From Pontivivens marinum (lineage in GTDB: Bacteria; Pseudomonadota; Alphaproteobacteria; Rhodobacterales; Rhodobacteraceae): a stretch of 64,000 nucleotides of DNA. Where the stretch lies: assembly GCF_900231835.1 (NCBI RefSeq), contig NZ_OCTN01000001.1, positions 558,001-622,000 of the forward strand, read 5' to 3'. The notes beneath the pieces are model-generated. The model was not told the origin of the DNA and ran no database searches. It worked only from the letters and a program-made list of their open reading frames with translations. Positions 2,503 to 5,520 of this stretch are shown here, piece after piece; the stretch's first letter is position 1; every line of letters begins with the position of its first letter. The translations under genes were made by a program, and so were the position numbers.

Positions 2503-2682
2503 GGGGCCTTGTGTCAGATCGAGGGAAAATAGCTAGTCACAACGTGGTTATCCACAGGCTGCAAAACGGCTGCTTTGTGGCTGCTATCGGTATGCGTAGG
2601 ATTTTGGTCGGGTATTGGCCAACAGCGTAGCGCCGAACACCTTGAACACCGGATCGACAGGGCACCCCACACGTCCGTTTTT
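2503..2682. other. Intergenic region with one perfect DnaA box
   Basis: This 180-base gap separates the EamA gene from the HTH gene. It holds one perfect DnaA-box sequence, TTATCCACA at 2548-2556, inside a short GTGG/CCAC inverted repeat. No cluster of boxes or AT-rich unwinding element accompanies it, so it is not an origin. I see no gene or clear terminator here. Confidence 0.4.
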
Positions 2683-3042
2683 CTAGTTTAACCTAGTAAG
2701 AAGAAATGCCAGCGCCGCACCCGCAATGAATGCACCGGTGTTTGAATCTCCGGCCTTCAATTCCTCCTTAGACACCACATTAACATCTTCTTTTTTCTCC
2801 AGTGCCTCTGCCATTTTGTCGGCTTGTGATGTGAGATTCCCGATCGACCAGTTTAGCACGCGACAAGCAGAGCGCAGATCTTCGATCTGAAAGTGCGCCT
2901 GCCCACGAGCGATCCGCGACCAAGTTCCTGTCGCAATACCAGATCTCCTAAAAAAATCCTGCTGCGTCAGCCCTCGCTCTTCGAGACGCTGAGATATGAG
3001 CGTGCAGATAATCATTGAGTATGTTGCGTTGCCGCTTGACAA
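2683..3042 (-). CDS. Small HTH (XRE-like) regulator with C-terminal hydrophobic anchor
   Basis: A protein of about 119 residues. Residues 18-55 (ISQRLEERGLTQQDFFRRSG...) look like a helix-turn-helix of the Cro/XRE type. A charged, Glu/Lys-rich linker follows, and the last 17 residues (GAFIAGAALAFLLTRLN) are hydrophobic enough to be a membrane anchor. I chose the TTG at 3042 because GGAG sits six bases before it; the ATG at 3015 has no ribosome-binding site, and a longer reading would start inside the operator. The gene faces away from the LRAT-like gene across a palindrome it may bind. That pairing and autoregulation are inference. It could instead be a soluble regulator with a hydrophobic tail. 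Confidence 0.65.
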   Translation of the reverse strand: MSSGNATYSMIICTLISQRLEERGLTQQDFFRRSGIATGTWSRIARGQAHFQIEDLRSACRVLNWSIGNLTSQADKMAEALEKKEDVNVVSKEELKAGDSNTGAFIAGAALAFLLTRLN

Positions 3043-3051
3043 AATGCGCTC

Positions 3052-3090
3052 CAATATCCAATTTAAATTTCAATATCCAATTTGGATATT
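3052..3090. promoter_or_regulatory. Palindromic operator with repeated half-site between HTH and LRAT-like genes
   Basis: AATATCCA-ATT-TGGATATT (3072-3090) is a perfect 8-base inverted repeat. A 13-base direct copy of its left part, CAATATCCAATTT, occurs at 3052-3064 and again at 3071-3083, 19 bases apart (about two helical turns). The right half of the upstream copy is degenerate. The array lies between the HTH gene's ribosome-binding site and a candidate promoter for the rightward gene, so one bound regulator could control both. Confidence 0.6.
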
Positions 3091-3117
3091 TGAACCAATG
3101 TAGAGTAAACCTAAAAT
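3090..3117 (+). promoter_or_regulatory. Candidate promoter of the LRAT-like gene
   Basis: TTGAAC (3090-3095) and TAAAAT (3112-3117) are spaced by 16 bases and resemble a housekeeping promoter. The -35 element abuts the right arm of the palindrome at 3072-3090, which would allow repression by occlusion. This is a visual match only. Confidence 0.35.
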
Positions 3118-3180
3118 GGGGACCTAAACGCCCCAAATCAAGCATAAACGCCGCTCAGGCCCCAATTGAAAGAAAAATGA

Positions 3181-3672
3181 ATGCAAGTGACACCCCCACT
3201 AAAGCCCGGTCAAGTAATTATCACAAGCTGCGGAAATTATACACATTTCTCAATCGTAAGCAGCGCTCGATGTATCAATGGAAACCTTATGCTAATATCT
3301 GCGAGCGATACGTCCATGACAGTCACTGAAGAGCCCTATCACAATGTCGTTCGCGGGCGCCCGACCTGCCTTGCTCCGCAACAGTCCTCCTTGCCCACCA
3401 ACACCATCTTGAAGCGTGCTCGCTCCAAGTTGGGTAAATGGCAATACCAGCTTCTTAGTGCCAATTGTGAACATTTCACAAACTGGGCAACGGGACTGAA
3501 TGTATCGTCGCGGCAAGTGAAAAGCACACTGTCCGGGGCGGCTATTGCTGGCGTTGCAACTGCGGTATTTGTGAAGGAACCAAGCTTCAAAATGTTGCTA
3601 ACGATGACAGTGATCGGCGGGCTTACTGGATTGGCCGCAGCCCAACTGCCTATAAAGGCGATTCAACAGTGA
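3181..3672 (+). CDS. LRAT/NlpC-P60-like (permuted papain fold) protein with C-terminal membrane segments
   Basis: A 163-residue protein. The N-terminal part PGQVIITSCGNYTHFSIV places a candidate catalytic His at residue 22. The signature NCEHF (Cys96, His98) is the hallmark of the lecithin retinol acyltransferase/H-REV107-like branch of permuted NlpC/P60 proteins, which act as acyltransferases or lipases through a Cys-His pair. Two hydrophobic stretches (about 116-131 and 137-155) suggest attachment to the inner membrane. No signal peptide is visible, so the catalytic domain probably faces the cytosol. The local sequence is AT-richer than its neighbours. Substrate and role are unknown; a lipid or acyl-chain reaction is inference from the family. 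Confidence 0.7.
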   Translation: MQVTPPLKPGQVIITSCGNYTHFSIVSSARCINGNLMLISASDTSMTVTEEPYHNVVRGRPTCLAPQQSSLPTNTILKRARSKLGKWQYQLLSANCEHFTNWATGLNVSSRQVKSTLSGAAIAGVATAVFVKEPSFKMLLTMTVIGGLTGLAAAQLPIKAIQQ

Positions 3673-3803
3673 CCACACGCAAGCCCACCCTAGGACGATT
3701 AGAAGATGGTCCTTGAGTTGACTGCCAACACAGCAATGAAGCTTTCATAGCCACAGTTCAGCCATAAGGCGACATACCAGCGATCAAGGTCGTGATGGCA
3801 ACA
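3673..3803. other. Intergenic region between LRAT-like gene and groEL terminator
   Basis: About 130 bases with no recognisable gene, repeat or promoter. It lies between the convergent ends of the LRAT-like gene and groEL. Confidence 0.5.
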
Positions 3804-3835
3804 ATAAAAGGGCCGTAGTTTCCACTACGGCCCTT
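3804..3835 (-). terminator. Rho-independent terminator of groES-groEL
   Basis: AAGGGCCGTAG (3808-3818) pairs perfectly with CTACGGCCCTT (3825-3835) around a six-base loop. In the leftward direction the stem is followed by TTTTATT. It lies 38 bases past the groEL stop. Confidence 0.85.

Positions 3836-3873: not shown

Positions 3874-5520
<1,647 letters not shown>

What the first reader, a model, noticed from the sequence alone, without database searches (positions are those of the whole stretch)
2683..3672. Divergent pair: HTH regulator with hydrophobic tail and membrane-anchored LRAT-like protein
Two small genes face away from each other in an AT-richer patch between ordinary core genes. One carries an XRE-like HTH plus a C-terminal hydrophobic segment. 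The other carries the NCEHF motif of LRAT/H-REV107-like permuted papain folds plus two C-terminal hydrophobic segments. They share a palindromic operator. A regulator and a putative acyltransferase/lipase that may both sit at the membrane could form a self-contained regulated module, perhaps a lipid-modifying, stress or conflict system. The function is inference; the motifs and gene order are seen.
Basis: partly seen in the sequence, partly recalled or inferred. Interest (0 to 1): 0.65.

Follow-up and report, generated by a model that had tools for sequence, protein, structure and literature searches.

The report
Lipase-like membrane gene with divergent regulator
A small gene pair, slotted between two ordinary genes, joins a likely membrane-bound lipid-cutting enzyme with a DNA-binding regulator that ends in a greasy tail; the same pairing, and the same kind of regulator beside virus-fighting viperin genes, recurs in other bacteria, which hints at a defence or conflict module that remains untested.

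Summary
Window 2683-3042 (-) encodes an XRE-type HTH protein with a C-terminal hydrophobic tail; 3181-3672 (+) encodes an LRAT-domain protein (Pfam E 7e-11) with Cys96, His22 and two hydrophobic segments. A perfect 9-bp-arm palindrome lies between them; the genome's only other site within 3 mismatches has 3. The pair sits in a ~1.2-kb AT-rich insert and is absent from the three same-genus genomes searched. The divergent pair recurs in six other loci (one on a Polaromonas plasmid; one with a frame-broken LRAT gene). Among solved structures the LRAT profile matches PLAAT phospholipase A/acyltransferases best. Searches with the regulator alone found tailed regulators divergent from prokaryotic viperins (two genomes) and a bpMoxR ATPase; one viperin-paired regulator groups with the window's in a tree. 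Two plasmids opened carry another LRAT type directly beside viperin. Best reading: a mobile, repressed, membrane-targeted PLAAT-like effector of conflict or defence. Activity, membrane insertion, repression and phage protection are untested. Against it: a usual third catalytic His is Ser, the window's HTH tail is weakly hydrophobic, its flanks are ordinary genes, and most LRAT genes found elsewhere lack the partner.

The parts
2616..3804 (.). Accessory insert: stretch without blastn homology to the same slot of same-genus genome G002; holds the two genes
   Evidence: homology to G002 stops at 2615 and resumes at 3805; GC dip
2683..3042 (-). XRE/Cro-C1-type HTH regulator, 119 aa from the probable TTG start at 3042 (open frame reaches 3054)
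   Evidence: Pfam HTH_31/HTH_3; start from comparison with L013 and GGAG spacing
2689..2739 (-). C-terminal hydrophobic tail of the regulator (TGAFIAGAALAFLLTRL)
   Evidence: hydropathy 1.62; 12 of 12 relatives have a tail of at least 1.6 against 1 of 26 control XRE proteins (the 12 were found with profiles that include the tail)
3072..3090 (.). Perfect palindrome, probable operator
   Evidence: the only other site in the genome within 3 mismatches has 3
3052..3064 (.). Further operator half-site, direct repeat of 3071-3083
3181..3672 (+). LRAT/PLAAT-like permuted papain-fold protein, 163 aa
   Evidence: PF04970 E 7e-11; family profile matches PLAAT3 chains at E 4e-14
3244..3246 (+). His22 codon, probable catalytic base
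   Evidence: invariant column in the 15-row alignment; position
3466..3468 (+). Cys96 codon, probable nucleophile of NCEHF
   Evidence: invariant in 7 of 7 aligned LRAT rows
3523..3573 (+). First hydrophobic segment after the SxQ motif (STLSGAAIAGVATAVFV)
3592..3642 (+). Second hydrophobic segment (MLLTMTVIGGLTGLAAA)

Best explanation
A two-gene accessory effector module. The LRAT/PLAAT-like protein is a membrane-tethered cysteine phospholipase A or acyltransferase that attacks or remodels the cell's own phospholipids when made. The divergent HTH protein is its dedicated repressor, bound at the palindrome; its hydrophobic tail places it at, or lets it sense, the membrane (or the enzyme's own tail), so that membrane injury, for example by a phage, would lift repression and lead to growth arrest or loss of the infected cell. 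Shown: both domains, the conserved Cys and His, the recurrent divergent pair, the hydrophobic tails, the palindrome, the accessory slot, and regulators of the same kind beside viperins. Inferred: repression, membrane location, lipid substrate, sensing and the defence outcome.
For: The pair recurs divergently in G124, G249, G454, G474, a Polaromonas plasmid and G582. In the window's family all 3 LRAT genes found in 295 sampled genomes (own included) are paired this way. LRAT profile against PDB: nine PLAAT/HRASLS-type chains at E 4e-14 to 7e-10, the best aligned through NCEHF and the S..QV motif. In human PLAATs a putative TM domain follows the LRAT domain and is needed, besides catalysis, for organelle deformation (PMC9338259, passages). 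A bacterial permuted NlpC/P60 relative, Tox-Act1, is an antibacterial phospholipase (PMC12994826, passages). Regulators of the same kind are divergent from prokaryotic viperins in G400 and G369 (PADLOC pVip E 7.6e-95 and 2.6e-84; solved viperins) and from bpMoxR in G732 (PF20030 E 2.6e-54). In a 12-row tree a 96/94 split groups the viperin-paired regulator of G400 with those of the window and L013. LRAT lies directly upstream of viperin on Acinetobacter and Moraxella plasmids. Accessory insert; operator without a near copy elsewhere.
Against: No PADLOC model matches the LRAT protein, and the window's flanks are ordinary genes, not a defence island. The usual third catalytic His is Ser40 here. 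Most LRAT loci elsewhere show no such regulator within about 1.5 kb: HTH in 2 of 11 non-own places of the class search and 1 of 13 of the phylum search; the closest plasmid LRAT (Salinivibrio) and the one genome-contig relative (L025) have none. None of 7 plasmid viperin loci examined has the tailed HTH. 20 of 26 control XRE genes also have a divergent neighbour within 400 bp, so divergence alone means little. No significant perfect palindrome in 6 of 7 relatives tested. Summed insertion scores are unfavourable for 6 of 10 HTH tails and 4 of 7 LRAT tails, the window's among them (scale recalled). No match in phage records or five viral-contig scans.
Confidence: 0.5

Rival explanations
1. A lipid-homeostasis or envelope-stress module without an immune role: the tailed HTH protein senses membrane state and tunes a lipid-remodelling acyltransferase; spread by transfer because it is locally useful.
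For: LRAT enzymes act in ordinary lipid metabolism (PMC10318531, passages); flanks look like housekeeping genes (my reading); the pairs in G249 and G474 also lie between ordinary-looking genes (my reading).
Against: Rare and patchy: 3 of 295 genomes in the family; same kind of regulator beside viperins; LRAT beside viperin on plasmids.
Confidence: 0.25
2. A toxin-antitoxin-like addiction pair of mobile DNA: LRAT is the toxin, the HTH protein the antitoxin that also represses, perhaps joining it by the tail.
For: Occurs on a Polaromonas plasmid typed as mobilizable; HipB, HigA and PezA are among the 45 PDB matches of the HTH profile, though restriction-controller and SinR proteins score best.
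Against: Divergent, not a co-directional operon; tail-to-tail similarity is not clearly higher within pairs than between them (0.14 of permutations reach the observed sum, 7 pairs); the regulator occurs without LRAT.
Confidence: 0.15
3. The LRAT protein is a peptidase or amidase that cuts its own regulator or another membrane protein rather than a lipid enzyme.
For: The NlpC/P60 superfamily includes peptidases and amidases (PMC3142127, passages); weak Peptidase_C97 match, E 0.0012, under cut-off.
Against: Nearest solved relatives by sequence are PLAAT lipid enzymes.
Confidence: 0.07

Closest known systems
PLAAT/HRASLS phospholipase A/acyltransferases (PF04970 LRAT)
   Same: LRAT domain, NCEHF nucleophile, His, S..Q motif then C-terminal hydrophobic segment (PLAAT domain order from PMC9338259, passages)
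   Different: Usual third catalytic His replaced by Ser40; no proline-rich N-terminus; bacterial, paired with a regulator
Tox-Act1 (T6SS antibacterial phospholipase, PMC12994826, passages)
   Same: Permuted NlpC/P60 cysteine enzyme of bacteria; membrane action is shown for Tox-Act1, inferred here
   Different: Separate clade from LRAT in that paper; secreted, with an immunity gene; in the window the LRAT gene's neighbour is a regulator
Prokaryotic viperins (pVip)
   Same: Share a tailed HTH regulator of the same kind in two genomes, and an LRAT neighbour on two plasmids
   Different: Different enzyme (radical SAM); no viperin beside the window's pair
BrxR-type WYL regulators of defence systems (PMC9122601, abstract, section list and passages)
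   Same: A repressor family found beside diverse defence systems, binding inverted repeats
   Different: No WYL match here; a short HTH protein with a hydrophobic tail; repression not tested
Type II toxin-antitoxin pairs
   Same: Two small genes, one a Cro/C1 HTH
   Different: Divergent order; no evidence of protein-protein neutralisation

Membership tests
LRAT/PLAAT enzymes (PF04970) | Score over the Pfam curated cut-off | tested here: met
   42.9 bits against 24.3
LRAT/PLAAT enzymes (PF04970) | Nucleophile Cys in NCEHF and upstream His | tested here: met
   Cys96 invariant in 7 of 7 rows; His22 in an invariant column of 15 rows
LRAT/PLAAT enzymes (PF04970) | Third catalytic residue His (CHH triad, PMC10318531, passages) | tested here: not met
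   Ser40 by hand reading of the alignment; Ser in 5 and Asp in 1 of the 6 paired rows there, His in 4 of the other 9. PMC3142127 (passages) says the third residue might not be essential in LRAT
LRAT/PLAAT enzymes (PF04970) | C-terminal membrane anchor, as in PLAATs | tested here: inconclusive
   Two hydrophobic segments, best mean hydropathy 1.75, summed insertion score +0.8; no localisation data
LRAT/PLAAT enzymes (PF04970) | Phospholipase A or acyltransferase activity | not testable with these tools
   needs biochemistry
LRAT/PLAAT enzymes (PF04970) | Permuted papain fold | tested here: inconclusive
   Single-sequence AlphaFold model failed, pLDDT 35; fold inferred from Pfam and PDB sequence matches
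XRE (Cro/C1) HTH regulators | HTH domain over Pfam cut-off | tested here: met
   HTH_31 29.2/27, HTH_3 25.8/23, HTH_26 23.7/22 bits
Type II toxin-antitoxin | Co-directional bicistronic operon | tested here: not met
   Divergent genes
Anti-phage defence system | Match to a described system (PADLOC) | tested here: not met
   No model for P0002 at E up to 1; P0001 only weak matches, best 1.4e-5
Anti-phage defence system | Association with known defence genes | tested here: inconclusive
   Not beside the window's pair; viperin beside relatives of each part
Anti-phage defence system | Protection against phage | not testable with these tools
   needs plating assays

The most novel reading that the evidence does not exclude
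A family of hydrophobic-tailed XRE repressors acts as an exchangeable membrane-sensing switch for bacterial antiviral effectors: viperins in some genomes and PLAAT-like phospholipases in others. The bacterial PLAAT-like enzyme would then be an unrecognised anti-phage effector, and PLAATs, like viperins, would be another immune effector type shared by bacteria and animals.
Probability: 0.3. Interest if true: 0.82.

Novelty: new variant of a known kind. Interest (0 to 1): 0.6.

Why it matters
In the searches made here I saw no paper that assigns a role to this type of bacterial LRAT protein or describes the pair. A recurrent two-gene module, with a kind of regulator that also stands beside viperins, gives a concrete, testable hypothesis: a membrane-directed PLAAT-like defence effector under a membrane-located repressor. 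It would also be a lead to how viperins are regulated in bacteria.

Tried and rejected
Tail-to-tail co-evolution of the two proteins: 0.14 of permutations reach the within-pair sum (7 pairs); dropped. Divergent order as evidence in itself: 20 of 26 control XRE loci share it; dropped. Operator conservation: of seven relatives tested for perfect palindromes only L013 stands out (5 of 300 shuffles); L020, L027, L016, L011, L121 and L123 do not (an imperfect one in L016 was seen). Phage origin: no match in phage records and none in five viral-contig scans. The match of P0001 in G058 (L010) overlaps a histidyl-tRNA synthetase-like frame (my reading) and was dropped as chance. One search listed 102 of 398 genomes, nearly all matching only the HTH part; I counted the 4 places that reach the tail columns (own, G582, G585, G732), and 26 others, the loci L054-L079, served as controls. 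In some searches at most 9 to 12 candidates per genome were scored, so counts are lower bounds. L033 has a tandem HTH (E 1.5e-5), not of the tailed type; not counted. An Aeromonas veronii plasmid regulator (L137:2554-3054) matches the 12-row profile at 1.9e-20 (columns 7-100) and has its own hydrophobic stretches; its divergent neighbour is an unnamed 182-aa protein; seen late and not in the 12. AlphaFold of the LRAT protein without an alignment failed; the HTH model is good over about residues 11-80 (block pLDDT 86-92) and poor in the tail. Papers were seen as search listings, passages, one abstract with section list; none was read whole.

Full report
What is there. The window lies in a 3.73-Mb assembly. 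Between an EamA-type transporter gene (1666-2502, -) and groEL (3874-5517, -) (names from my reading of the translations) lie two divergent small genes. The first encodes an XRE-type HTH protein (Pfam HTH_31, HTH_3 and HTH_26 over cut-off) with a C-terminal hydrophobic tail. The second encodes an LRAT-domain protein (PF04970, 42.9 bits, cut-off 24.3) with NCEHF at 95-99 and two hydrophobic segments after it. GC falls to 0.46.

Operator. AATATCCAA-T-TTGGATATT at 3072-3090 is perfect; 14 of 2000 shuffles of the intergenic stretch match or exceed it. A further half-site lies at 3052-3064. In the whole genome the only other site within 3 mismatches has 3, so the regulator looks dedicated to this locus (inference). 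A weak promoter-like match for the LRAT gene begins at 3090 (2 found in the region, 1.1 expected). L013 has a different but comparable palindrome (5 of 300 shuffles); the other six relatives tested show no significant perfect one.

An accessory insert. The LRAT protein has no match in 100 other genomes, three of the same genus among them; the HTH protein has two weak ones, in G092 and G058, the latter dropped as chance. Aligned with G002 (same genus), homology stops at 2615 and resumes at 3805, so the insert is little more than the two genes. In the relatives where a match to the transporter and the groEL 3' end lie near each other, the slot is about 220-250 bp in G006 and G008 and holds other frames in G001-G004.

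The pair recurs. In the window's family 3 of 295 sampled genomes have an LRAT match: the window's, G124 and G249, and all three have a divergent HTH gene whose product ends in a hydrophobic tail. In the class search (11 of 289 genomes) the pair is in G454 and G474, 2 of 11 non-own places. In the phylum search (12 of 398 genomes) it is in G582, 1 of 13 non-own places; there the LRAT gene is split over two frames. These counts look about 1.5 kb to either side. Of 14 plasmid records with a P0002 match I examined 10; one, Polaromonas pH1NP1, typed as mobilizable, carries the pair. So there are six pairs besides the window's. Unpaired LRAT genes are common; the best full-length plasmid match (Salinivibrio, 33% identity over 91%) has no HTH partner within the 5 kb examined on each side, and the single relative found in genome contigs (L025) has none either.

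The regulator has other partners. Profile A1, made from six LRAT-paired regulators (the window's included), was run alone. In the phylum it reached the tail columns at 4 places (own, G582, G585, G732); in the class 6 of 337 genomes passed 1e-13 (own, G092, G369, G400, G454, G474). G454 and G474 are rows of the profile, so the independent non-own cases are six: LRAT in 1 (G582), prokaryotic viperin in 2 (G400, G369), bpMoxR in 1 (G732), a 746-aa frame with a P-loop-like motif by eye, no Pfam match and only a weak LeoBC match (E 1.9e-4) in 1 (G092), no evident partner in 1 (G585). These five partners are all divergent from the regulator. The viperins match PADLOC pVip at 7.6e-95 and 2.6e-84 and solved viperins. 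In a tree of 12 regulators a 96/94 split groups the viperin-paired one of G400 with the window's and L013's; 7 of 9 inner branches are unresolved. The tail reaches 1.6 in 12 of 12 (partly by construction) against 1 of 26 controls. Among 51 neighbour proteins of the 26 controls, scanned at E up to 1e-10, no pVip was found; 14 PADLOC families matched, each in one protein, with largely helicase-type names (my recall of the names).

LRAT beside viperin. Of 9 plasmid records with a relative of the G400 viperin I examined 7. In two, Acinetobacter towneri and Moraxella osloensis, an LRAT gene lies directly upstream and in the same direction (PF04970 E 2.9e-26 and 2.2e-21); a second Moraxella record, not opened, has the two matches side by side by their coordinates. 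That LRAT type keeps VIHYSG, with a His at the third position, and a longer hydrophobic C-terminus, so it is another subtype. The tailed HTH was in none of the 7. A Vibrio pangenome study lists an LRAT-family gene in an association cluster with a gene matched to defence models, an integrase and DUF2787 genes (PMC12409351, passages); LRAT with DUF2787 and radC also stands on two Aeromonas plasmids.

What the enzyme is. A profile of seven LRAT rows (six paired ones and Salinivibrio) finds PLAAT3, HRAS-like suppressor and PLAAT4 chains as the best solved relatives (nine chains, E 4e-14 to 7e-10), the best aligned through the S..QV motif after NCEHF. In human PLAATs the LRAT domain is followed by a putative TM domain that is needed, besides catalysis, for organelle deformation (PMC9338259, passages). 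The permuted NlpC/P60 relative Tox-Act1 is an antibacterial phospholipase (PMC12994826, passages). LRAT enzymes are described as CHH (PMC10318531, passages); here the third position reads Ser40 by hand on the alignment (Ser in 5 and Asp in 1 of the 6 paired rows), a departure that may or may not matter, since the third residue might not be essential in LRAT (PMC3142127, passages).

Mechanism. The most likely picture is a repressed, membrane-tethered lipid enzyme released when the regulator leaves its operator, perhaps because its tail responds to the membrane. Architecture, recurrence and the regulator's other partners are shown; repression, membrane location, lipid chemistry and protection are inferred. 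Hydropathy gives mixed support for insertion: summed scores are unfavourable for 6 of 10 HTH tails and 4 of 7 LRAT tails, the window's two among them. Against a defence reading stand the ordinary flanks, the absence of a PADLOC match for the LRAT protein, and the many unpaired LRAT genes. A review title links PLAAT4 to pathogen restriction in animals (PMC10102619, title and start of abstract in search listings), which makes the parallel with viperin attractive but proves nothing.

Noticed in passing
L121:442-1866, L123:1183-3072: Prokaryotic viperin genes divergent from XRE regulators with hydrophobic tails, in two genomes of the window's class; a candidate viperin regulator family.
   Followed up: partly
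L132:1381-3406, L131:1325-3385: Plasmid gene strings: small unknown protein, LRAT protein, viperin, in one direction (Acinetobacter towneri, Moraxella osloensis).
   Followed up: partly
window 2548-2613: A short dispersed repeat (matches of 34-46 bp) with five further places in the genome, just left of the insert boundary at 2615.
   Followed up: partly
L113 (G002 slot): The same slot in a same-genus genome holds two small unknown frames, 80 and 174 aa, the longer with a C-terminal hydrophobic stretch; no Pfam match was returned.
   Followed up: partly
L129:2163-9473: Tailed HTH divergent from a 746-aa frame without Pfam match, near a protein with Hsp70 and FGE-sulfatase domains; may be a further conflict system.
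   Followed up: partly
L137:2554-3054: A related regulator with hydrophobic C-terminal stretches on an Aeromonas veronii plasmid, divergent from an unnamed 182-aa protein.
   Followed up: no
L140, L142: LRAT gene followed by DUF2787 and radC on Aeromonas plasmids.
   Followed up: no
L028:1-8315: Nostoc plasmid LRAT gene near NACHT NTPase, ABC ATPase and type I restriction genes.
   Followed up: no
L045:1465-1925: The LRAT gene of the G582 pair is split over two frames: decay or assembly error.
   Followed up: no
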